Below, piece by piece: positions 5,218-51,916 of a stretch of 53,373 nucleotides of DNA. Origin of the DNA: Prochlorococcus sp. AG-355-A18 (lineage in GTDB: Bacteria > Cyanobacteriota > Cyanobacteriia > PCC-6307 > Cyanobiaceae); the NCBI GenBank assembly GCA_003280985.1, contig QCDH01000008.1, positions 1 to 53,373 on the forward strand. The letters run 5' to 3'. Position 1 is the stretch's first letter; every line of letters starts with the position of its first letter. The position numbers and the translations under genes were made by a program. The notes under the pieces are model-generated. The model was not told the origin of the DNA and ran no database searches. It saw only the letters and a list, made by a program, of their open reading frames with translations.

Positions 5218-6075
5218 ATGAGATTAAGAAGCGGATTACTTATAGGAATTTTTGGTTTGATTGTTGTTTTGATGGGGGGATGGTTTTTTACATTAGCAAC
5301 TGCTTTGCTTACATATCTAGCATTATTAGAATTTTTTAGAATGGCAGAATTTAAAGGAATACGACCAGCTACAAAAACCACATTATTTTCATCCTTTATT
5401 ATTATAGTTGCTACTTACCTTGAAACTATTGGTGTGCTTGAAGGAGAAATTTCAAATTCAATTTTGCCAATCTGTTCAGTTGGGATATGCACTTGGTTAC
5501 TTTTGCAACCAAAACCTGGGACAATTTCAGATATTGCTGCATCTATTTTTGGATTATTCTATTTAGGTTTCTTACCTAGTTACTGGATTAAGTTAAGGGG
5601 ATTAGATTCAGTCATAATGAGTTCAAATCAGGATTTTATGTCTTTTGAGAACTTATCAAATACTACTGGTCTTCATTTGACTTTAACTTCTTGTTTTTTA
5701 ATTGTAGCTAGTGATATTGGTTCTTATTTCATTGGGAAGTCATTTGGTAAAACATCTCTATCTCCAATATCTCCAAGCAAAACTGTAGAAGGTTTAATTG
5801 GAGGAATATCCTGTTCAACTTTACTAGCGATATTTTTCGCATTTTTAATGAACTGGGAAAATCCATTATTTGTTGGAATAATATATGGAATTTCAATTTC
5901 TCTTATGGCATTAGTTGGAGATTTAATTGAATCTATGATGAAGAGAGATGCAAAAATAAAAGATTCCGGAACTTTTTTACCTGGGCATGGAGGAATTCTT
6001 GACAGAATTGACAGTTACATATTTACTCCATCTGTTTTGTATTATATTTTTATAATTCTCAAATATCTAAATTAA
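5218..6075 (+). CDS. cdsA: Phosphatidate cytidylyltransferase (CDP-diglyceride synthase)
   Basis: A 285-residue polytopic inner-membrane enzyme that makes CDP-diacylglycerol from CTP and phosphatidic acid, the branch point to phosphatidylglycerol, an essential thylakoid lipid. Many hydrophobic helices span the protein. The family signature lies near the C-terminus: KRDAKIKDSGTFLPGHGGIL followed by DRIDS (residues about 241-266). It is preceded by the SPSKTVEGLIGG loop at about 190. The gene ends 16 bases from the convergent hydrolase gene. The assignment is secure. Confidence 0.96.
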   Translation: MRLRSGLLIGIFGLIVVLMGGWFFTLATALLTYLALLEFFRMAEFKGIRPATKTTLFSSFIIIVATYLETIGVLEGEISNSILPICSVGICTWLLLQPKPGTISDIAASIFGLFYLGFLPSYWIKLRGLDSVIMSSNQDFMSFENLSNTTGLHLTLTSCFLIVASDIGSYFIGKSFGKTSLSPISPSKTVEGLIGGISCSTLLAIFFAFLMNWENPLFVGIIYGISISLMALVGDLIESMMKRDAKIKDSGTFLPGHGGILDRIDSYIFTPSVLYYIFIILKYLN

Positions 6076-6091
6076 TTAATTAAAAAATCTT

Positions 6092-6991
6092 TTATTCCAA
6101 AAAATAATCTTGGATAATTTTACTAGATAATGATGGTAGATCTATATGTGGAAGATGGCCACAATTTTGTAGCCCTACAAAATTTAATTTTTCAATACTT
6201 CTTATATTTTTAATCTCTTTTTTTCCAAGAATTCGATCATTTTCTCCACATAATGTTTTAATTGGGATATTTTGGATATATTTTTGAGTCCCGGCAAACC
6301 CACCACTTTTTGCAAATGATGCAAGTGAATTCCTCCATCCTTTACAGCCTAGATGAATTGAAGCAATTTGCTCTTCCATCTTGCCAACACATTCATCTGG
6401 GAAAGCAAATGCTTGCCTACAAAGACTTTTTCTGACCTGAGGCAAACCAAGAAATGAGGCGCCAATTTGGTTAAGAGGGAAAGGGACACTCTTAGGTTCT
6501 CCAAACAATCCGGCGGGGGACAGAAGGATAATTTTATCAATAGAATCAGGAATTTCAAAAGCAAGTTTTAAAGCTGTTGAGCCTCCCATAGAGGCACCAA
6601 CAATTTTTAGATTATTTGCTATTTTTAAGGTCTTAAGGAGATCAATTAAATGTGAAATTATTTTCGAGGAATTGTATTCATTTGTTGCGCACCTAGGACT
6701 AAAACCAAAACCCAGCAGATCAGGAACAATAACTTGAAAATTTCTTTTTAGTGATTTATATATTCTCCTGAATTCTAAAAAACTACTATCAAAGCCATGC
6801 AGAAGAAGTATAGGTTGGCCTTTCCCTCCAATTACTACTGGGAAATATAAAGAATTCCAGTTTTGGTTGAGTTTTATCCACTTAACATCATTTGCCAAAT
6901 AAAGACCTAAAGGGTCTAACAGTGACAATTTGGCACTTTCAAAAAATTCTGCATTTAAATCACTTAATTGTTCAAAATTGTTTTTAGTCAA
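6092..6991 (-). CDS. Alpha/beta hydrolase-fold protein
   Basis: A 299-residue alpha/beta hydrolase. The oxyanion-hole strand LLHGFDSSFLEFR is at about 74-86. The nucleophile elbow GASMGGST is at about 134. The likely acid Asp is in CGENDRIL (about 252) and the catalytic His in NCGHLPHID (about 279). All three catalytic positions are therefore present. The substrate is unknown; esterase, lipase or dehalogenase-like activity cannot be told apart. It follows the Fe-alcohol dehydrogenase-family gene by 6 bases and clpC further upstream, probably as one transcript. Confidence 0.88.
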   Translation of the reverse strand: MTKNNFEQLSDLNAEFFESAKLSLLDPLGLYLANDVKWIKLNQNWNSLYFPVVIGGKGQPILLLHGFDSSFLEFRRIYKSLKRNFQVIVPDLLGFGFSPRCATNEYNSSKIISHLIDLLKTLKIANNLKIVGASMGGSTALKLAFEIPDSIDKIILLSPAGLFGEPKSVPFPLNQIGASFLGLPQVRKSLCRQAFAFPDECVGKMEEQIASIHLGCKGWRNSLASFAKSGGFAGTQKYIQNIPIKTLCGENDRILGKKEIKNIRSIEKLNFVGLQNCGHLPHIDLPSLSSKIIQDYFLE

Positions 6992-6997
6992 AAAAAT

Positions 6998-8089
6998 TTA
7001 TATTTTTATTTTTTGTTGTTCAAAATTTGAAATTAACTCTATTATATCCCGTTTATTAATTTCAAAAGGCAAAAAGTAAATCTCAGAATTATCTCGACAA
7101 GTAAAATCAGCAATTTTCTCTAAATTATTATTTTCAAAAACATTTATTCCAAGTTGTCCGATAGAAGTTGGCAAATTCAATTCTTTCATGAGTACAAATA
7201 ATTGTTTAATTGATTGATCAGCTAATTTATTATTATTTTTCATTTCTTCTAATCTTAATTGCAATAATAATCCAACCCCAACAATCTCACCATGCAAGAA
7301 TTTATTAGGGGTGATTATCTGAGTAATTGCATTATGAATAGCATGGGCTGCTGCAGTCCTACACTTTTCTCCACCAATACCACCAATTAATCCTGCTGTA
7401 AGTCCACATGCTTCTATAGTATTTTGCCAAGAAGGATAATTTTCAAATTGACCCTTAAACGCTTTTTCTCCATCTATTAATAGTTGATCTCTTAATACTC
7501 TTGATATCTGAATTGCTTGTTGAACAAGACCGTCATCTATCGTTAAACTTGTTATTGAGGATTCGTACCATTTTGCCAAGGCATCTGCTATACCACTTGC
7601 GAGTGTTCTTGCTGGAGCTGTTTGAATAAATTTATGATCATAAACAAGTATTTTAGGACAAGATCTTAATGCGACATCCTCTATAAATTGACCATACTTG
7701 GTATATATATTTGATAAAGCTGTCCAACCTGCACATGTAGAGGCGCTAAGGGGGACAGTAATACAAGGGATATTAAGAGACTCGGCTATATATTTTCCCG
7801 AATCTAGAACTTTGCCACCTCCAGCTGCGATAACAGCATCATTATTATTATCTGAAATGATAGTCTTGACTCTTGAAATATCTTCGTAACAACAATCAAA
7901 TTGTAAATAAGCAGAATTAACATTAAGATTTTGGTTTTTTAAATCATTAAAAATATTATTTCTCAAATTATTTGTTTCGATTCCTCTACCTAGGATTAAT
8001 GGACTTTTAGTTAATTTAGTAATTTGAGGTAAAGATTCTTCCCAAGCATAATTTCCCCTATATATAGTTTCTGGAGAGATTGACTGCAT
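6998..8089 (-). CDS. Glycerol dehydrogenase-like protein (iron-containing ADH superfamily)
   Basis: A 363-residue member of the glycerol dehydrogenase branch of group III metal-dependent alcohol dehydrogenases. The NAD-binding GGGKVLDSGKYIAE is at about 91-104. Metal ligands are expected in ASGIADALAKWYES (Asp), AAAHAIHNAI (His) and HGEIVGVG (His), all present. A polyol or hydroxyketone is the likely substrate. Glycerol itself and glycerol-1-phosphate are both possible from the family. It sits 15 bases after clpC on the same strand and 6 bases before the hydrolase. Confidence 0.85.
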   Translation of the reverse strand: MQSISPETIYRGNYAWEESLPQITKLTKSPLILGRGIETNNLRNNIFNDLKNQNLNVNSAYLQFDCCYEDISRVKTIISDNNNDAVIAAGGGKVLDSGKYIAESLNIPCITVPLSASTCAGWTALSNIYTKYGQFIEDVALRSCPKILVYDHKFIQTAPARTLASGIADALAKWYESSITSLTIDDGLVQQAIQISRVLRDQLLIDGEKAFKGQFENYPSWQNTIEACGLTAGLIGGIGGEKCRTAAAHAIHNAITQIITPNKFLHGEIVGVGLLLQLRLEEMKNNNKLADQSIKQLFVLMKELNLPTSIGQLGINVFENNNLEKIADFTCRDNSEIYFLPFEINKRDIIELISNFEQQKIKI

Positions 8090-8104
8090 ATTTACTTTGA
8101 ATGA

Positions 8105-10630
8105 TTAGAAGTTGGCACCAGCTAGTTCTTGAGAAGATTCTTCAGAAGAAATATTTATTGTAACTTTTTTATTATCATCTACATCAACTAAAGCATTATC
8201 TCCGTCTTTTATTCTCCCAGAAAGAACTTCTTCAGCCAAACTATCTTCGAGTAAACGCATTACCGCCCTTCTCAGAGGTCTTGCTCCGTATGAAGGATTA
8301 TAACCTTCTTCAACAAGTCTTTCTTTAAAAGCATCGGTACAATTTAATTTAATGCCTTTATCTTGTAATCGGACAAAAACTTCTTGCAACATTATTTCAG
8401 CAATTTCTTTAACTTCATTTTTAGTTAGTTGTCTGAATACAATTATTTCATCAAGTCTATTTAAAAATTCAGGCCTAAAGTATTGCTTCAGTTCTTCGTT
8501 AACCAATGATTTAATTCTATTATATTGGCTATCTTCAACTGAATCACCTGAGAATTCGAATCCTAATCCGCCACCTCCTTTCTCAATAACTTTTGAACCG
8601 ATGTTAGAGGTCATTATTAACAATGTATTTTTAAAATCTACAGTTCTACCTTTGGAGTCAGTTAATCTTCCGTCTTCAAGTAATTGCAATAATAAGTTGA
8701 AAACATCTGGATGTGCCTTTTCAACTTCATCAAATAAAACGACGGTATAAGGACGTCTTCTGACCGCTTCAGTAAGCTGGCCACCTTCATTAAAACCAAC
8801 ATAACCAGGAGGCGAGCCTATAAGTTTACTAACTGTATGTCTTTCCATAAATTCTGACATGTCTAATCTGATCATTGCTTCTTCACTACCGAAGAAATAT
8901 GAAGCTAATGATTTAGTCAATTCAGTTTTACCAACACCAGTAGGACCAGAGAAAATAAAACTTGCGATGGGCCTATTAGGATTTTTCAATCCAACTCTTG
9001 CCCTTCTTATAGCTCTTGAAACGGCCTTTACAGCTTCATCTTGTCCAATTAGCCTTTGGTGAAGTGTTTCCTCCATATTAAGGAGCTTGACTGATTCAGT
9101 TTCTGTTAATTTTTGAACAGGAACTCCTGTCCATGAAGCCACAATATGTGCTACATCCTCTTCACTAACAAGGGGACTTTGCAAAAGTTTTGAATCACTA
9201 TTTACAGATTTACCAACATCGGATTGATCTCCAGTTGTAGACTCTTTTTTATTATCCAATACCTCTTTAATTTTCGCAGACAATTCCATCTCTTTTTCAC
9301 GTAATTGGCCAGCTTGATCGAAATTTTGGTCTCTTACAGATTCTTCCTTTTGTTTTTGGATTTGTCTAAGTTCTTTATCTATTTGCTTTGCTTCAGGAGG
9401 AAGTTTAGAGTTAATTAAACGTACTCTACTTCCAGCCTCGTCGATGAGGTCAATAGCCTTATCTGGTAAAAATCTGTCAGATATATAACGATCCCCTAAA
9501 TGAGCTGCAGCCTCTAGCGCATCATCAGTGATTTTCAAACGATGATGTTGTTCATAACGCTCTCTAAGACCTTTTAAAATTTCGATTGTATCTTCTATAG
9601 ATGGCTCCCCTACCATTACAGGCTGGAATCTTCTTTCTAGAGCAGCATCTCTTTCAATATGTTTTCTATATTCATCTAGAGTTGTGGCTCCAATACATTG
9701 AAGTTCACCTCTAGCTAATGCTGGCTTGAGTATATTTGCTGCATCTATAGCTCCTTCAGCAGCTCCAGCACCAATTAAGGTATGCACTTCATCTATAACA
9801 AGAATAACGTTACCTGCTGATTTAATTTCTTCCATTATTTTTTTTAACCTTTCTTCAAATTCACCTCTATATTTTGTTCCTGCTACCAAAAGGCCTATAT
9901 CAAGAGTCAAGACTCTTTTATCTTCAAGAATGTCTGGAATATCCCCAGTTTGTATTCTTTGAGCTAGACCTTCTGCGATAGCTGTTTTCCCTACACCAGG
10001 CTCACCAATAAGGACAGGATTATTTTTTGTCCTCCTACCTAGTATTTGAACAACACGATCTATTTCTGAATGACGTCCAACGACTGGATCTAATTTTGAT
10101 TCGCTTGCTAATTTTGTTAAATTTGTTCCAAATTCATCAAGAGTAGAAGTTTTTAAGTTGGCCTTATTTGAACTCGCCCCTGTGCCAACTTCGGCTGTTT
10201 CACCTAACATCCTTATAACTTGAGTTCTAACTTTTGTGAGGTCAATATTAAGATTTTCAAGGACTCTTGCAGCCACACCTTCGCCTTCTCTTATTAAACC
10301 TAACAATAAATGTTCTGTACCAATGTAATTGTGGCCAAGTTGACGGGCCTCTTCTAAAGATAGTTCTAAAACTCTTTTAGCCCTAGGAGTAAAAGGTATT
10401 TCTACAGCTACAAAACCTGATCCTCTACCTATTATCTTTTCAACTTCTATCCTCGAATCTTTTAAATTAACTCCAAGTGATTTAAGTACTTTCGCTGCGA
10501 CCCCAGTTCCTTCTCCAATTAACCCTAAAAGAATTTGTTCAGTTCCAACAAAATTATGACCAAGTCTTCTAGCTTCCTCTTGAGCAAGCATGATGACTTT
10601 TATAGCCTTTTCTGTAAATCTTTCAAACAT
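8105..10630 (-). CDS. clpC: ATP-dependent Clp protease regulatory subunit ClpC
   Basis: An 841-residue Hsp100 unfoldase that feeds substrates to ClpP/ClpR. In order: a duplicated Clp-N domain (1-145); AAA module D1 with Walker [14 protein letters not shown] (about 207) and [11 protein letters not shown]; a UVR-type coiled segment (about 415-450); module D2 with Walker [12 protein letters not shown] (about 556); and the C-terminal D2-small domain. The length and the UVR segment identify ClpC rather than ClpB or ClpA. The full domain set and high conservation suggest the essential housekeeping copy. It is followed closely by two unrelated metabolic genes. Confidence 0.97.
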
Positions 10631-46123: not shown

Positions 46124-46240
46124 AAAAAGTGATTTTTTATTAAAAATTTATTAAATTAGTCTTTTATAGATGACAGTTATGAACTTATAGCTTATGAGCG
46201 GGGCGGGGCGCAGCTTGGTAGAGGGTGCTTTGGAAGCATA
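46124..46240 (+). pseudogene. Decayed 5' half of tRNA-Pro with its upstream flank
   Basis: About 117 bases similar to 49021-49140: first the flank (AAGTGATTTTTTAT, then GATGAC-GTTATGAACT and CTTATGAG), then tRNA positions 1 to about 43 from 46199. Relative to the intact gene it has T8 to G, a 2-base loss in the D-stem and an anticodon-loop change. It diverges completely after GCATA, so no T-arm or 3' acceptor strand exists. It cannot fold as a tRNA. It marks the left border of module 1. Confidence 0.88.
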
Positions 46241-46505: not shown

Positions 46506-47627
46506 ATGAACCTCTCCAAGACTTCTGCACTATTAGCATTTTCTTTGGGTTCCTTTTTCCCTTTATCGGCTAGCGAGTACAAATTTGAAGAAATCAAATT
46601 TGATCAAACTGTAAAAAAGCAAAATATATTTGAACCAAAAGACAAATTAGAAGAATACATAATCAAAGCAGCAACTTATTCAACTAAGTTTGTTCCCTTA
46701 ATGAATCAAGGTGCTGAAGGCAGTGAATATACTGATTTATTGTTTAGTGATGGTAAAAGAATATTAGCTGATGCCGGATATGACTTTGTAAATTCAACGG
46801 CTAATAGTTCAATTCAAAGTATTCCATTTTTTGCTCAGACATCAGTAAATATTTCTGGAGGGACAGAATCTGATACAAGTTTCTCTTTAAATAGTTTAAT
46901 GAAGTTAGGAGAGCTAGCTAAAGATGATGAGGGTGATATTAAAACACTTGCTTTTTCTCAAGCAAGATTAGCAACTGCTACTAATGCAGAGGGTTCCACT
47001 ACTAACTTAGGTTTAGGAATTAGACATCGTCCCAATGATGTATCAATGTTAGGAGCGAATGCATTCTGGGACTACAGAATGACCGATTATAGTGATGCTC
47101 ATAGCAGACTTGGTCTTGGAGGAGAATATCTCTGGAAAGATTTTGAGCTTAGAAATAACTGGTATATGTCAATTACTAATGAAAAAGATGTAACTATTAA
47201 AGGTGTTTCTTATAAAGAAAGAGTTGTTCCAGGATGGGATGTGGAAGTGGGTTATAGATTACCAAATAGTCCAGAACTTGCTTTCTTCGTAAGAGGATTT
47301 AACTGGGATTACAAAAATACTCAAGACAATTCTGGTTTAGAAGGTACTTTAAGTTGGCAGGCTACGCCTCACGTGGGATTAGAAGCTTATGTATCAAACG
47401 AAATATCTGCTGCATCAACCACTGTAAACACTTCTCTTCCTGGAACAGATGAAACATTCTTTGGATTAAGAGTGAATCTTACCAGCAGCCCAGTGACATT
47501 TGGCAAAAAAGATTATAAGAAAAATATGATCACTCAAATGACTCAGCCGGTAAAACGTGAATATAATGTTTTACTTGAAAGATACGCTGCTGGAACAAGT
47601 TTTACAAGTAGAGTTGGAGGTAACTAA
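46506..47627 (+). CDS. Inverse-autotransporter-type beta-barrel (intimin/invasin family) without a fused passenger
   Basis: A 373-residue exported protein with a signal peptide at residues 1-23 (cleavage near PLSASEY). An early helical region ends in SGGTESDTSFSLNSLM. The family-typical barrel then begins: TTNLGLGIRHRPNDVSMLGA, NAFWDYRM, SRLGLGGEYLWKDFELRNNW, VPGWDVEVGYRLP. It closes with TPHVGLEAYVSNEI, GLRVNLTSSPVTF and a linker-like MTQPVKREYNVLLER. In intimin and invasin that linker threads through the barrel to a C-terminal passenger. Here only about 14 residues follow it. The next gene, 3 bases downstream, encodes a secreted protein. First gene of module 1. Confidence 0.85.
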   Translation: MNLSKTSALLAFSLGSFFPLSASEYKFEEIKFDQTVKKQNIFEPKDKLEEYIIKAATYSTKFVPLMNQGAEGSEYTDLLFSDGKRILADAGYDFVNSTANSSIQSIPFFAQTSVNISGGTESDTSFSLNSLMKLGELAKDDEGDIKTLAFSQARLATATNAEGSTTNLGLGIRHRPNDVSMLGANAFWDYRMTDYSDAHSRLGLGGEYLWKDFELRNNWYMSITNEKDVTIKGVSYKERVVPGWDVEVGYRLPNSPELAFFVRGFNWDYKNTQDNSGLEGTLSWQATPHVGLEAYVSNEISAASTTVNTSLPGTDETFFGLRVNLTSSPVTFGKKDYKKNMITQMTQPVKREYNVLLERYAAGTSFTSRVGGN

Positions 47628-47630
47628 ATA

Positions 47631-48587
47631 ATGGAAAAATTTTCAAATTTTTATAAATCCCTAACCCACAAAACAATGAAAAAATTCAACTTAAAATCAA
47701 AAAAACTTTTAACAACTGCCTTATTTCTATCTTCAGGTTTAACAATACTTAGCCACTCTAATCCTGTCAAAGCTTCGGCATGTCCTGACCCCAGCACAAT
47801 TACCAGTCCCAATGATTTTGGAGATGGCACAAGTTTTATAGCTACAACTGGAGGAAGTTGTTATGGAACACCAGAGGAATATGGCGTAACTATTTATAAA
47901 ATGGGACTTTGCACAAGCAATCCTGCTCCTTCATCTGCAGGTAGTGCTCCAGATACTTCCTCCTGTTCATTTAACTTTGAAAAAGATGATGGAGTTGGAG
48001 AGGCTGCATCATTTGCAGCAGGTGGAGAAGTAGATCTTTCAGAAGCTTATTCCTCTAGACCTGACGTTGGTGAATATAGATTTGCCTACATTGAAATCAA
48101 AAATAGCTTCGATATAAAAGCCTCATATGGTCCAATTGGTGATGTTGACAGAACAACATACTTTACTAATGGCACCTTAAGCGAAGCTGGCACAGTTACT
48201 GGGGCATCAACCACTCCCACAGCTTCTGATGGATATGTCACTACAGAAGCTCCCTTGACCACATTTGGGTTTTTAGATGGAGGAGGATCAGTATGCGAAG
48301 CTACAGGAGAAGAGAGTGTTACTGGAGGAACAATACGTGCTTATTTATTAGATTCATCTGATACTTTAATCGCCGATGACTCCTCAGCAACCGAATGCAG
48401 CGGGGTAACAAAATTACTTGGAATAATGCAGTTAGATACTAGTGTAAACATTACTGCAGCCACTACATCTGTAAAGACTATTTTTAAAGTCGAAGATAAT
48501 GGAACAACAGTAGTATATGACGATGTTGCAGATGGTATACGTTTTGACTCAGGTCCTTTCAGCGTATCTTTTGAAACTGGTGAATAA
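47631..48587 (+). CDS. Secreted cysteine-containing protein encoded with the barrel
   Basis: A 318-residue protein, or 303 if translation starts at the ATG at 47676, which gives a cleaner signal peptide (KKLLTTALFLSSGLTIL, cleavage near VKASA). The mature part is acidic, rich in Ser, Thr, Gly and Asp, and strand-like, with six cysteines (near mature residues 3, 30, 45, 60, 180 and 210). There is no membrane helix or sortase signal. No family recognised. Its position 3 bases after the barrel suggests a detached passenger or a partner on the cell surface; this is inference. Composition is close to that of known surface and adhesin domains. Confidence 0.8.
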   Translation: MEKFSNFYKSLTHKTMKKFNLKSKKLLTTALFLSSGLTILSHSNPVKASACPDPSTITSPNDFGDGTSFIATTGGSCYGTPEEYGVTIYKMGLCTSNPAPSSAGSAPDTSSCSFNFEKDDGVGEAASFAAGGEVDLSEAYSSRPDVGEYRFAYIEIKNSFDIKASYGPIGDVDRTTYFTNGTLSEAGTVTGASTTPTASDGYVTTEAPLTTFGFLDGGGSVCEATGEESVTGGTIRAYLLDSSDTLIADDSSATECSGVTKLLGIMQLDTSVNITAATTSVKTIFKVEDNGTTVVYDDVADGIRFDSGPFSVSFETGE

Positions 48588-48614
48588 TTCCTTAAAAATA
48601 TTTTTTAATCTTTT

Positions 48615-48953
48615 TTGAACTTATTTACTGAAAAAACTTTTAATAAAAGAAAATTTATATTCATATTTTTTCTTTTTGTTAATACTTTATTTATTAATGA
48701 AATATTTGCTTCAAAAAAAAGAAGCATTATCTCCGGAGTTGAGGTAAAAACTTATAAGAAAGAAATAAAACATATTGAGACATCTGCTTTGTTATGCGCC
48801 CTAGCAATAAATGGAAATTCTCTTGAAGACATAAAGAAAAATTTAGAGACTACTTTTAAAAAACCAATTTCTAGATCAGATAAATTTCTTATAAATGATG
48901 TAATGAGTTCTATGTGTCCTGAGTTTGACAATAGAAAAATATTTGAAAATTAA
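48615..48953 (+). CDS. Small exported hypothetical protein of module 1
   Basis: A 112-residue protein with a TTG start. A basic N-terminus and a hydrophobic segment (KFIFIFFLFVNTLFINEI) form a signal ending near FASKK. The mature part is basic and helical, with two cysteines (LLCALAI and SMCPEF). I do not recognise it. It is 27 bases after the secreted protein gene on the same strand, so it is probably the third gene of a surface-protein operon. AGCGACAAAA repeats begin 8 bases after its stop. Confidence 0.68.
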   Translation: MNLFTEKTFNKRKFIFIFFLFVNTLFINEIFASKKRSIISGVEVKTYKKEIKHIETSALLCALAINGNSLEDIKKNLETTFKKPISRSDKFLINDVMSSMCPEFDNRKIFEN

Positions 48954-49095: not shown

Positions 49096-49169
49096 CGGGG
49101 CGTGGCGCAGCTTGGTAGCGCGGGTGCTTTGGGAGCACTAGGTCGCAGGTTCGAATCCTGTCGCCCCGA
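49096..49169 (+). tRNA. tRNA-Pro (anticodon TGG), intact copy
   Basis: A full cloverleaf: acceptor CGGGGCG/CGCCCCG, D-arm GCGC/GCGC, anticodon stem GGTGC/GCACT with loop TTTGGGA, T-arm GCAGG/CCTGT with TTCGAAT, and discriminator A. CCA is not encoded. It is the only functional one of three related copies. Its 3' 49 bases and the next 4 bases recur perfectly at 51449-51501, and its 5' half and flank recur in decayed form at 46124-46240. Confidence 0.97.
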
Positions 49170-49188
49170 CTCTAATAATCCAAGTCAC

Positions 49189-49242: not shown

Positions 49243-49280
49243 TGAGCGAGCTTTGAGCGAGATTCTGCTATGCCTTGCAA
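49243..49280 (+). repeat. Left inner repeats of module 2
   Basis: Two TGAGCGAG words exactly 11 bases apart (49243, 49254), then CTATGCCTTGCAA (49268-49280). The same set recurs at 51301-51346. A small palindrome TATCG-TT-CGATA lies just beyond at 49296-49307. The rest of 49217-49371 is non-coding. Confidence 0.7.
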
Positions 49281-49371: not shown

Positions 49372-49662
49372 ATGAGTGATTTATCAGATGCTGTTTTCAA
49401 AGGACATCTTGCTGGTGAAGCAATCAAAAATGATGGGAATATTACTAATGCCATTGCCCAAGCATCATTAGAAGCAAAAATGGTTGGAGGTTTTGCTGGT
49501 TCAGACGATCTTAGTGAAGCAGAAGCAACTGTTTTAGAAGCAAAAGTAGCTGCTGGAGTTGCAGAAGATGGTGATGATTATAATGATGTTCTTGGAGATA
49601 TTCTTGAAGCCAAAGTTGAAGGGGACATAGCAGAAGGTTTTATAAATGGAGAGCTCATCTAA
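49372..49662 (+). CDS. Small acidic repeat protein of module 2
   Basis: A 96-residue, strongly acidic protein without cysteine, signal or membrane helix. It has three imperfect internal repeats around LEAKMVGGFAG, LEAKVAAGVAEDG and LEAKVEGDIAEGF, spaced about 23 residues apart and each preceded by a polar acidic stretch. The N-terminus DAVFKGHLAGEAIK may be a fourth, diverged unit. Likely helical. No family recognised. The 528-residue gene starts 16 bases later on the same strand, so the two form an operon. Confidence 0.75.
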   Translation: MSDLSDAVFKGHLAGEAIKNDGNITNAIAQASLEAKMVGGFAGSDDLSEAEATVLEAKVAAGVAEDGDDYNDVLGDILEAKVEGDIAEGFINGELI

Positions 49663-49678
49663 ACTCAAAAAAACGTAA

Positions 49679-51265
49679 ATGGCTCTTTACAGAAATTTTG
49701 CCTCTGGATACACAGTTAAAATTGAAAATTACAATCCTATATTTACTAGAGCTCTTAATAGAGCCATATCTACTAAAGACTGTATATTTAAAAAAAATTT
49801 TACTCTACTAAACCAAAGTGAAAATATACATAAAGTTGAATTAGAACTGAAAACACCTCGAAATTGCGGAGCCAGTTCTAATTTAGATACTTACTTTGTG
49901 CATTTGCTATTTTCACAAGAAGATAAAACTCATTCAAAATATGGCAACCCATTTGATAAATTCCTAATTTCAATAACCTATCCAACTTTTTGGGAAATCC
50001 CTCAGAAATTTATGCTTTATACTTTTAACGATTTTGCTAAATTTGCAGATAGATTAGAGGCATCTTGTAAGATTAATCTCCAATTAAAACAATTAGAATT
50101 AGATGGAGAAATATCCATAATAAAAAAACAATTTCACCCTAGTAGAACATTTAAAATCCTTGATGGTATGTTTGAGAGCAATTACAAATATGGTGGTGAG
50201 AAAACTTACTTAGATGAATATTTGAGTGAAGAACTACAGAGAGAATTACCCTTTTATGATGATAAAGCAGTAACAAAACAGAATAGCGAAATAACTAACA
50301 ACCCTTCAAATTCTGAATTAAGCATTTTAGATAAAGACACTATTAATTCAGATGCAATCAAACAAAATGATAATTTTTGGAAAAAAAATAATATCCCTAC
50401 ATTTATACCTTCAAAAGCTGAAATTCCTGAAGGATTTGAAGATATTGGATCAACAATTGAAAATTTTAAAAATGCTTTAATTAATCCAACCTCATCATTC
50501 CAAACATTCTTCAATGATTTAGATTTTATAACTAACGAAGGTGAATCTAATTTCATCAATGACGAAGTTTTAAATACGCCTCCTTTTGATGAATCTGTTT
50601 ATTGTGCCCTAATAAAAGAAATGCATAGATATTCTTTAGCTGAATTAAAAGATAAGAATGAAGAGAATTCCAGTATTAAAAGTAAATTTGGAGCAATTGC
50701 AGGAGGTTTACTAGGAGTTTTAGCTAGAAATCCTTTGGCACCATTCATGGGTATTAATATAGGTTCAAGCTTTGCAAAGATTGGAGTAAATAAACTAACA
50801 AAAGTCGAAGAAATTTTGCCAGACCCTAAGTTGCAATTCCTAAATGACAATTATTCTTTTCTCTCAATCGGCCGATCACAAATGCCTAAGACAAGAAGAG
50901 TCATTTTTGCTCCATTAAAAAATGATCACAATAAGATATATTTTCGAATTATTCCCGCAATCGTGACACTTGATTTTGTCTTGCCAATGCAAGTTTTTAA
51001 AATTGGTTTGAAAGAATACTATTTACGTCCTATAGGTGCGGGTATAGAGAGGAATCAAACCAATTATGATTCAGTAAAGATGCATAGAAAATATTACCAC
51101 TCGAGAGTAGGGGATGGCATCACAAATGATACTGGAGAAAGAGTTACTATTATTGGCCCTGATATTGAAAATATTGACTTCAAACTTTTTTACTATCAGA
51201 GTGATAGCCAGAATCTAAATTACCTTTATTTTGACTATATTAAGCAACCAGGATTTGTATATTAA
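49679..51265 (+). CDS. Large unknown protein of module 2
   Basis: A 528-residue protein that I do not recognise. No signal peptide at the start. The N-terminal part (1-170) is a mixed alpha/beta region with aromatic clusters. Residues about 175-260 are polar, Asn- and Ser-rich and probably flexible. A glycine-rich hydrophobic hairpin lies at about 338-366 (GAIAGGLLGVLARN, then PFMGINIGSSFAKIG), resembling a membrane-inserting or glycine-zipper element. The C-terminal 150 residues are strand-rich and end KQPGFVY. The layout could suit a membrane-active or structural protein, but nothing proves it. It is bounded by the module's end repeats. Confidence 0.8.
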   Translation: MALYRNFASGYTVKIENYNPIFTRALNRAISTKDCIFKKNFTLLNQSENIHKVELELKTPRNCGASSNLDTYFVHLLFSQEDKTHSKYGNPFDKFLISITYPTFWEIPQKFMLYTFNDFAKFADRLEASCKINLQLKQLELDGEISIIKKQFHPSRTFKILDGMFESNYKYGGEKTYLDEYLSEELQRELPFYDDKAVTKQNSEITNNPSNSELSILDKDTINSDAIKQNDNFWKKNNIPTFIPSKAEIPEGFEDIGSTIENFKNALINPTSSFQTFFNDLDFITNEGESNFINDEVLNTPPFDESVYCALIKEMHRYSLAELKDKNEENSSIKSKFGAIAGGLLGVLARNPLAPFMGINIGSSFAKIGVNKLTKVEEILPDPKLQFLNDNYSFLSIGRSQMPKTRRVIFAPLKNDHNKIYFRIIPAIVTLDFVLPMQVFKIGLKEYYLRPIGAGIERNQTNYDSVKMHRKYYHSRVGDGITNDTGERVTIIGPDIENIDFKLFYYQSDSQNLNYLYFDYIKQPGFVY

Positions 51266-51300: not shown

Positions 51301-51346
51301 TGAGCGAGATTTGAGCGAGCTTTTGCATACCTATGCTATACCTTGC
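51301..51346 (+). repeat. Right inner repeats of module 2
   Basis: Two TGAGCGAG words 11 bases apart (51301, 51312), then CTATGCTATACCTTGCAA. This matches the left set at 49243-49280 in order and orientation, with a 5-base insertion. The following 51347-51448 has no gene. Confidence 0.7.
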
Positions 51347-51448
51347 AACATTAGATTGCAATATTGAGACTCATATTAATCCTAGTCATACCAACTCATA
51401 AGCTATAGCCTCACTTGTTTCTCATGGGGGCTGTCGCATTTTGCGTAG

Positions 51449-51501
51449 CGGGTGCTTTGGGAGCACTAGGTCGCAGGTTCGAATCCTGTCGCCCCGACTC
51501 T
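51449..51501 (+). repeat. 3' half of tRNA-Pro, 53-bp perfect direct repeat (attachment-site remnant)
   Basis: Identical over 53 bases to 49121-49173, from the end of the D-stem through the anticodon, T-arm and 3' acceptor strand. The acceptor 5' strand and D-arm are missing (the preceding bases only vaguely resemble them), so this is not a functional tRNA. A duplicated tRNA 3' end at the far side of an insertion is the classic product of integration into a tRNA gene. Confidence 0.9.
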
Positions 51502-51519
51502 TAAAAACCAAGTCATACT

Positions 51520-51546
51520 AGCGAGTTACCCAGACTCGCTTTTTTA
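51520..51546 (+). terminator. Terminator following the tRNA-Pro fragment
   Basis: AGCGAGT, a 7-base loop, ACTCGCT and a T-run. It is framed by the same CCAAGTCA and CCCAG words as the terminator of the intact tRNA, so the two regions are homologous while the stem has been replaced with base pairing kept. Confidence 0.85.
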
Positions 51547-51554
51547 TTGAAAAA

Positions 51555-51590
51555 TTTGACGGCAGGAAGAGCCGTCAAAATGCCGTCAAA
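51555..51590 (+). promoter_or_regulatory. Hairpin and repeated GCCGTCAAA at the start of the terminase-like gene
   Basis: Perfect 9-bp inverted repeat TTTGACGGC/GCCGTCAAA with the 7-base loop AGGAAGA, followed 2 bases later by another GCCGTCAAA whose last base is the A of the ATG. The loop holds the only Shine-Dalgarno-like sequence. It could be a protein operator or a translational control hairpin. Confidence 0.55.
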
Positions 51591-51916
51591 TGCAAGGCTC
51601 TTTCAAGTTATTCGAGTCAGGCATGGGGGTGTCTGAAGTAACTAGAACCCTTGTCAGGGACTACGGGATTACTCGTAGAAGTGCGAATCTGGACGTTAAT
51701 TGGGCAAGTGCTCAAATAGTGAAGAGCATGAAGAAGTACGAGAAAACAGACCTTCTGGGATGGTTAATAACACAGACTGAGAGGGTATATATAAAAGCCC
51801 TGGAAGCTAATCAACTAAGTGCAGCTATTGGAAGTTTGAATTTAATGCACAAAATCACGATTGAAGCGTCAGATAAAAGAAAACAGAACCCATTTCATGG
51901 AAATTACAAGCATTAG
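51590..51916 (+). CDS. HTH protein resembling a phage terminase small subunit
   Basis: A 108-residue protein. The N-terminal part has a helix-turn-helix (FKLFESGMGVSEVTRTLVRD, then YGITRRSANLDVNWA). The C-terminal part has the pattern DLLGWLITQTERVYIKALEA followed by NQLSAAIGSLNLMHKI, resembling the oligomerisation helices of small terminases that bind pac DNA. No partner large terminase or other phage structural gene is visible. Lone small terminases are typical of phage satellites. The ATG chosen follows a stop at 51557 with no other start between. Codon use is less AT-biased than in neighbouring genes. A plain HTH regulator remains possible. Confidence 0.6.
   Translation: MQGSFKLFESGMGVSEVTRTLVRDYGITRRSANLDVNWASAQIVKSMKKYEKTDLLGWLITQTERVYIKALEANQLSAAIGSLNLMHKITIEASDKRKQNPFHGNYKH

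What the first reader, a model, noticed from the sequence alone, without database searches (positions are those of the whole stretch)
49372..51265. Two-gene module of unknown proteins occupying a tRNA-Pro insertion
Module 2 carries only an acidic 96-residue protein with about three LEAK-centred repeats and a 528-residue protein with a glycine-rich hydrophobic hairpin. There is no integrase, so it must be moved in trans or be a relic, yet both frames are intact, implying selection. A small acidic protein before a large, possibly membrane-active protein is compatible with an inhibitor/effector, bacteriocin-like or anti-phage pair, but nothing proves this.
Basis: partly seen in the sequence, partly recalled or inferred. 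Interest (0 to 1): 0.72.

Follow-up and report, generated by a model that had tools for sequence, protein, structure and literature searches.

The report
Mobile tRNA cassette with unknown protein pair
In what looks like a small marine cyanobacterium, two genes of unknown function sit inside a tiny integrase-free insert next to a tRNA gene; the same two-gene arrangement recurs in other cyanobacteria, and inserts with the same ends but different genes recur in its relatives, which points to a trade in small gene cassettes whose end tags may say which enzyme moves which cassette.

Summary
49372-49662 (acidic 96-aa protein) and 49679-51265 (528-aa protein) are intact, lie between tRNA-Pro(TGG) and a displaced tRNA-Pro copy, and have no integrase beside them. 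Neither has a meaningful match in Pfam, PHROGs, PADLOC or NCBIfam. Adjacent homologues of both, same order, occur in two other genera; a fourth genome (same genus) has the large protein's C-terminal domain behind a longer acidic protein whose homology is not shown. The large proteins share about 295 C-terminal residues behind three unrelated N-termini.

The stronger result is the carrier. The module ends in paired doublets (GAGCGAG, 11 nt apart), 74 nt after the tRNA and 132 nt before position 26 of its copy. The doublet occurs in 14 of 54 genus genomes; 7 of 11 intervals that show it carry it at both ends, with conserved ends and unrelated interiors. Other intervals carry other doublets matched end to end (0 of 20,000 permutations reach this), and one type is shared by an integrase-bearing element and integrase-less intervals. 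I conclude: a complete non-autonomous cassette, probably moved in trans. The window type's driver was not found and movement is not shown. The pair's role is unresolved; effector plus acidic partner is my leading guess (0.3).

The parts
49096..49170 (+). intact tRNA-Pro (TGG), left border of the cassette and integration target
   Evidence: ARAGORN
49244..49261 (+). left end doublet GAGCGAGCTTTGAGCGAG, 74 nt after the tRNA 3' end; proposed integrase arm site (inferred)
49372..49662 (+). acidic 96-aa protein, pI 4.05, net charge -16
   Evidence: homologues
49679..51265 (+). 528-aa protein of unknown function
   Evidence: homologues
50375..51262 (+). conserved C-terminal part of the 528-aa protein (48, 43 and 29% identity to three homologues)
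   Evidence: alignments A3 and A5
50687..50764 (+). glycine-rich, moderately hydrophobic stretch (about residues 337-362)
51302..51319 (+). right end doublet GAGCGAGATTTGAGCGAG, 132 nt before tRNA position 26 of the right copy; proposed integrase arm site (inferred)
51427..51498 (+). second, displaced tRNA-Pro copy (positions 2-75, 90.7%), right border; the 68-nt repeats are spaced 2328 nt
46199..46238 (+). 5' tRNA-Pro remnant (positions 1-42), left border of the neighbouring module 1 (inverse autotransporter, 318-aa and 112-aa genes); context, not part of module 2
   Evidence: Pfam IAT_beta 4.5e-65

Best explanation
Module 2 is a complete non-autonomous cassette of about 2.3 kb inserted at tRNA-Pro. 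Its ends carry paired 18-nt doublets that most likely are the arm sites of a tyrosine integrase supplied by another element; the integrase would cut in the anticodon stem-loop, the stretch shared by the 5' and 3' tRNA fragments at this locus, so that cassettes stack beside the tRNA. Shown: borders, doublets, fixed geometry, recurrence of the same ends round unrelated cargo, and, for another doublet type, sharing of the doublet by an integrase-bearing element and integrase-less intervals. Inferred: that the doublets bind integrase, and movement in trans. The cargo is a two-gene unit: a small acidic protein followed by a large protein with a conserved C-terminal domain and exchangeable N-terminal parts. 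My leading guess for its action (inferred, about 0.3) is an intracellular effector in anti-phage defence or competition, with the N-terminus as variable sensing or targeting part, the C-terminal domain as common working part, and the acidic protein as partner or inhibitor.
For: Doublets at both ends, none in 100 shuffles. Same doublet, up to 1 mismatch, in 14 of 54 genus genomes, own included. Geometry: of 11 left doublets 9 lie 74-79 nt after a tRNA 3' end and 2 at 31 nt; 9 of 9 right doublets lie 129-132 nt before tRNA position 26 of the next copy. 7 of 11 intervals that show it have it at both ends; in these 7 the left ends are 72-86% and the right ends 61-88% identical to the window's, interiors are 460-3562 nt, and the only interior blastn match is 51 nt between two of them. 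Cargo differs: Nramp plus DoxX, a TPR protein, a cadherin-like protein, RRM and DUF1330 proteins. Ends matched within intervals: 18 intervals from loci picked only by the apt gene share 162 7-mers between left and right end against 48.8 +/- 12.2 permuted; 26 further intervals without GAGCGAG, 206 against 61.1 +/- 12.9; 0 of 20,000 permutations reach either. Doublets with at least 8 matches in 35 of 45 left and 28 of 45 right ends against 66 of 5000 background windows. A 9.06-kb element in G238 with a PF00589 integrase has GGTAGCT doublets 53 nt after the tRNA and 142 nt before position 26 of the right copy; integrase-less intervals carry the same doublet: at both ends in two (L086, L097: left +74 and +76, right 143 and 142), at the left end only in one (L086, +53). 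Pair; G805 has it in a tRNA-Cys-flanked module with its own doublets. Small acidic proteins pI 4.05-4.32 in 4 of 4. Restriction-modification genes near the pair in G009 and G364.
Against: No integrase with GAGCGAG doublets was found, so the window cassette's driver is unknown; the integrase tblastn used three queries only and 54 genomes were scanned for the doublet. No excision product or empty site was shown. Four of 11 intervals with a GAGCGAG doublet have it at one end only (L087, L089, L092, L096). Of 55 intervals 3 lack any left and 13 any right doublet of 6 or more matches. Only 19 of 45 left ends have their own right end as best or tied match, partly because types are shared. The left offset of the G238 element (+53) is matched by one of three integrase-less GGTAGCT left ends. 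The fourth acidic protein is not demonstrably homologous (hhalign probability 0.5%). Structure predictions failed (mean pLDDT 29.8 and 38.9) and no solved structure matches (weak unrelated ones), so the functional guess rests on context.
Confidence: 0.65

Rival explanations
1. Relic: module 2 is what is left of one integrase-bearing island that lost its integrase by deletion, and it no longer moves.
For: Integrase-bearing elements do occur at this tRNA. Passages of PMC5704250 describe integrase-less att-flanked elements as generally decayed. No driver for GAGCGAG was found. Four of 11 intervals with the doublet have it at one end only, as decay would give.
Against: The same two ends surround unrelated cargo in seven intervals; decay would have to spare both ends and remove the integrase each time. 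Both frames in the window are intact.
Confidence: 0.2
2. Homologous exchange: cassettes are reshuffled by ordinary recombination between tRNA copies and conserved ends, not by an integrase.
For: Ends are 61-88% alike and tRNA copies nearly identical, so recombination between them is possible.
Against: It does not by itself explain doublets of mostly 11-12 nt period at fixed distances, or their sharing with an integrase-bearing element.
Confidence: 0.12
3. The pair is a toxin-antitoxin or inhibitor/effector defence system in the strict sense: the large protein is toxic alone and the acidic protein neutralises it. (A reading of the cargo; it does not exclude the cassette reading.)
For: Small acidic gene directly upstream, 16-47 nt away, in 4 of 4 loci; mobile setting in the window and G805; restriction-modification genes near two loci; variable N-termini.
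Against: No PADLOC match at E up to 1; no known toxin domain; hydrophobic stretch weak; the fourth acidic protein not shown to be homologous; no toxicity test.
Confidence: 0.3
4. The pair is structural: an acidic scaffold or chaperone and a self-assembling protein, with no toxicity.
For: Repeat-like acidic small protein, marginal; lipoyl-like domain in one homologue (Biotin_lipoyl 4.3e-6); C-terminus alike nearly to its last residues.
Against: No virion family match at E up to 1 for the window proteins or, for the homologues, only weak ones; no usable structure.
Confidence: 0.15

Closest known systems
Tycheposons (Hackl et al. 2023: not held, recalled; mentioned in PMC10872708 and PMC11389934, passages read)
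   Same: Marine bacteria, tRNA target, cargo; elements at the same tRNA carry a tyrosine recombinase and DUF3987, VapE-like or AAA proteins
   Different: Module 2 is about 2.3 kb and has no recombinase or replication gene; the passage of PMC10872708 gives 4-200 kb and a tyrosine recombinase
Cis-mobilizable elements (CIMEs) and accretion (PMC5704250 and PMC3146451, passages read)
   Same: No integration or transfer gene, att-like repeats at both ends, tandem stacking at one RNA gene
   Different: CIMEs are described as decay products; here unrelated cargos share one pair of ends, with doublet tags matched end to end
Additive flexible genomic islands with repeated tRNA ends (PMC10872708, passages read)
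   Same: Repeats of a tRNA end with small variable inserts in streamlined aquatic bacteria
   Different: No end doublets or driver-cassette matching in the passages read
Integron cassettes and CALINs (PMC11389934, passages read)
   Same: Arrays of cargo units without their own integrase, movable in trans
   Different: tRNA-Pro core instead of attC (attC not searched for here); direct doublets; no integron integrase seen

Membership tests
Cis-mobilizable element (CIME) | flanked by attL- and attR-like repeats of the target | tested here: met
   tRNA-Pro at 49096-49170 and copy at 51427-51498
Cis-mobilizable element (CIME) | no integration or transfer genes | tested here: met
   two ORFs of 80 aa or more on the + strand, no such family; two overlapping minus-strand ORFs not examined
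Cis-mobilizable element (CIME) | can be mobilized | not testable with these tools
   no excision or transfer data
Tycheposon | tyrosine recombinase in the element | tested here: not met
   none in module 2; present in other elements at the same tRNA
Tycheposon | tRNA integration site | tested here: met
Integron cassette | attC site with inverted core repeats | not tested
   no dedicated search was made; the ends found are direct doublets
Known anti-phage defence system | match to a PADLOC family | tested here: not met
   0 families for both proteins at E up to 1
Toxin-antitoxin pair | adjacent co-directional genes conserved together | tested here: met
   three genomes by homology; fourth by position only
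Toxin-antitoxin pair | toxicity neutralised by the partner | not testable with these tools
   needs an expression test

The most novel reading that the evidence does not exclude
Picocyanobacteria run an integron-like cassette trade at tRNA genes: many short integrase-less cassettes, each tagged at both ends by a doublet that assigns it to one of several coexisting tyrosine integrases, all sharing one anticodon-loop core; the window cassette carries a previously undescribed two-component effector family with exchangeable N-terminal parts.
Probability: 0.35. Interest if true: 0.85.

Novelty: new variant of a known kind. Interest (0 to 1): 0.62.

Why it matters
Streamlined ocean bacteria carry much of their gene variation in a few islands. 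If end doublets assign cassettes to integrases, one could read from sequence alone which genes can move together, which enzyme moves them, and where an orphan cassette's driver should be sought. The pair would add an undescribed protein family carried as cargo.

Tried and rejected
Family libraries gave nothing useful for the pair; a TatA hit at E 0.18 was rejected as noise. Solved-structure searches gave weak, unrelated hits for A3 (best E 0.26), weak lipoyl-domain and other hits for the G009 protein (best E 0.046), and none for A2, A5 or the 528-aa protein. AlphaFold with two-row alignments failed, so no fold search was run. Scans of viral contigs with the large protein, its homologues and the small-protein alignment found no relative; they use short patterns and can miss relatives. 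Genome contigs gave nothing, then only the contig already known as G364. Phage records gave nothing for the window and G805 large proteins; the G009 large protein matched three unannotated Listeria phage clones over its lipoyl-like part, taken as a lipoyl-domain match unrelated to the pair. Plasmids were searched with the G009 C-terminal part only, no match. The small proteins were not searched in phages or plasmids. The GAGCGAG pattern hit two viral contigs with 63-66% GC and no tRNA; rejected as chance. The built-in control is uninformative because GAGCGAG reads the same backwards.

Rows dropped or partial. One search found the apt gene in 75 of 121 genus genomes; I fetched 20 of them, mostly the best matches. 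One search included the window interval among its 19; one search repeats the test without it. The geometry script recognised 20 of the 21 places (it missed the L089 place; one search includes it). For integrases in doublet-bearing intervals I scanned 25 ORFs by Pfam (two of them from L096, which has the doublet at one end only); none is an integrase; one 75-aa ORF of L085 and one 61-aa ORF of L086 were not scanned. One search was 10 chosen ORFs. The genome samples overlap and must not be added.

Full report
What is there. The two reading frames lie where the finding says, 49372-49662 (96 aa) and 49679-51265 (528 aa), 16 nt apart on one strand. They sit between the intact tRNA-Pro(TGG) at 49096-49170 and a displaced copy of it at 51427-51498. 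A third, 5' fragment of the same tRNA at 46199-46238 bounds the neighbouring module 1, which carries an inverse autotransporter (IAT_beta 4.5e-65) and two more genes. No integrase is seen in module 2. The window is contig 8 of a 1.18-Mb, 70% complete genome; I infer Prochlorococcus, no call names it.

The proteins. Neither has a meaningful match in Pfam, PHROGs, PADLOC or NCBIfam. The large one has none in phage records or solved structures; profiles of its C-terminal part and of the small protein have none or only weak, unrelated ones. Searched separately in 400 family genomes each, the large and the small protein were found in the same 3, own included, at E limits of 0.001 and 0.01. In G009 and G364 they are adjacent and in the same order, 26 and 47 nt apart. 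A profile of the C-terminal part found a fourth relative, in 2 of 266 genus genomes, own included: G805, where a 197-aa acidic ORF ends 42 nt upstream. That ORF is like the small protein in place and acidity (pI 4.05), but homology is not shown (hhalign probability 0.5%). Other surveys found only own and G009: 2 of 386 phylum genomes, 2 of 290 family genomes, and, for the small protein, 1 of 79 genomes round G009, itself. These samples overlap.

Domain build. The C-terminal parts, about 295 residues, are 48, 43 and 29% identical to the window's. The N-terminal parts fall in three kinds: G009 and G364 are alike (21%, E 4e-9), the window's and G805's match nothing at E up to 10 by blastp. G009 has a Biotin_lipoyl match (4.3e-6), G364 only a sub-threshold one (0.14). 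I take conservation of the C-terminal part across genera at this divergence as a sign of selection on the protein (inference; no rate test was made). The glycine-rich stretch is kept in place but only moderately hydrophobic, so membrane action is weakly supported. G805 has a clear hydrophobic segment elsewhere, near its N-terminus (2.72).

Settings of the pair. G009: downstream of a tRNA-Ser, with a tyrosine integrase (PF00589 4.4e-11) and a DUF3987 protein between and a type I restriction enzyme subunit beyond; the far border of that element was not found in the 16 kb examined, so I cannot say that the pair lies inside it. G364: a 13.7-kb contig with matches to modification, specificity, AAA and PDC-S02 proteins of defence systems. 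G805: a module bounded by 24-nt copies of the tRNA-Cys 3' end spaced 2981 nt, with TTTCCTACC-type doublets at both ends; its ORFs are the pair and a TPR protein, no integrase (the tRNA was named in another genus genome, G356).

The carrier. The window module has GAGCGAGCTTTGAGCGAG at its left end and GAGCGAGATTTGAGCGAG at its right end; 2 matches in the window, 0 in 100 shuffles. I fetched the side of the apt gene that faces tRNA-Pro in 20 other genus genomes (20 of the 75 with an apt match). The tRNA was found, whole or in part, in 20 of 20, and many loci show several 3' fragments in series. Soon after the left tRNA end and before the right copy most intervals have a short doublet, mostly of 11 or 12 nt period. 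In 18 intervals from these loci left and right ends share 162 7-mers against 48.8 +/- 12.2 in permutations; 26 further intervals without GAGCGAG from later loci give 206 against 61.1 +/- 12.9; 0 of 20,000 permutations reach either value. Doublets of at least 8 matches occur in 35 of 45 left and 28 of 45 right ends against 66 of 5000 background windows. An earlier form of the test with the window included agrees. Against: only 19 of 45 left ends have their own right end as best or tied match, and of 55 intervals 3 lack a left and 13 a right doublet of 6 or more matches.

The window's own type. The doublet, with up to 1 mismatch, occurs in 14 of 54 genus genomes, own included, at 21 places. I fetched stretches from the 13 others. 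Of the 20 places that the script recognised, 11 are left doublets, 9 of them 74-79 nt after a tRNA 3' end and 2 at 31 nt; the 9 right doublets lie 129-132 nt before tRNA position 26 of the next copy. Eleven intervals with both borders in view have the doublet at one end at least, 7 of them at both; L087, L092 and L096 have it at the left only and L089 at the right only. In the 7, left ends are 72-86% and right ends 61-88% identical to the window's, interiors are 460-3562 nt long, and the only interior blastn match is 51 nt between two of them. Cargo differs, for example Nramp plus DoxX, a 924-aa TPR protein, a cadherin-like protein, RRM and DUF1330 proteins. None of the ORFs scanned is an integrase.

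A driver for another type. In G238 an element runs from the tRNA to a copy 9.06 kb on; it codes for a 212-aa PF00589 integrase (2.6e-24) and has GGTAGCT doublets at +53 and 142 nt before position 26 of the right copy. Two intervals without a detected integrase have GGTAGCT doublets at both ends, one in L086 (+74 and 143) and one in L097 (+76 and 142); a third, in L086, has it at the left only (+53). So an integrase-bearing element and integrase-less intervals share this doublet, with the same right distance and, in one of three, the same left offset. With three integrase queries I found integrases in 2 of 34 pooled loci. No driver with GAGCGAG was found.

How it probably works. Of 10 partial 5' copies of the tRNA 9 end at positions 40-43; of 57 partial 3' copies 42 begin at 25-29, 13 at 16-18 and 2 at 33. 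That leaves the anticodon stem-loop (anticodon at 35) as the stretch shared by nearly all. I infer that a tyrosine integrase cuts there and uses the doublets as arm sites, as phage integrases do (recalled), and that one integrase serves all cassettes with its doublet. Binding and movement are not shown. For the pair I commit, at about 0.3, to an intracellular effector with a variable N-terminal part and an acidic partner; the setting near restriction-modification genes in two loci is the main reason and is weak.

Comparison with print. Passages of PMC3146451 describe 15 ssrA islands without integration module in Dehalococcoides and suggest cis-mobilizable elements. Passages of PMC5704250 define these as elements that lost integration and transfer genes and keep attL and attR. 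Passages of PMC10872708 describe tRNA-Lys end repeats that precede additive islands, and tycheposons of 4-200 kb. Passages of PMC11389934 list tycheposons among proposed phage satellites and CALINs as integrase-less cassette arrays. The tycheposon paper itself is not held, so I cannot say whether it reports the doublets. Searches round the subject (listings capped at 8 to 15 papers, with the opening of their abstracts) showed no title about such tags; that is no proof of absence. I therefore file the carrier as a new variant of a known kind, and the pair as a family without a match in the libraries searched.

Noticed in passing
46199-46238 and L047, L055, L060, L061: Some modules duplicate the 5' half of tRNA-Pro (to position 40-43) instead of the 3' half, so the array seems to grow on both sides of the tRNA.
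   Followed up: partly
46506-48953: Module 1 carries an inverse autotransporter beta-domain protein; homologues 86-90% identical sit at the same hotspot in L043, L045 and L060, each followed by a more variable second gene (40-48%).
   Followed up: partly
51500-51916: Right of the last tRNA copy lie a CCGTCAAA-type doublet and a 108-aa ORF without a meaningful family match, perhaps the start of a further module.
   Followed up: no
L007:10751-11242 and L008:11634-11897: A similar hydrophobic protein (164 aa; 88 aa in the second) precedes the small acidic gene in both G009 and G364, possibly a third partner that the window lacks.
   Followed up: no
L063:947-2461: The G805 large protein has two copies of a YxGSxEYxxxKxxNPxLFK motif before the conserved domain (read by eye).
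   Followed up: no
L096 (reversed) 5650-9403: An interval with a GAGCGAG doublet on the left and a GGGGGCGCT doublet on the right, perhaps two cassettes fused.
   Followed up: no
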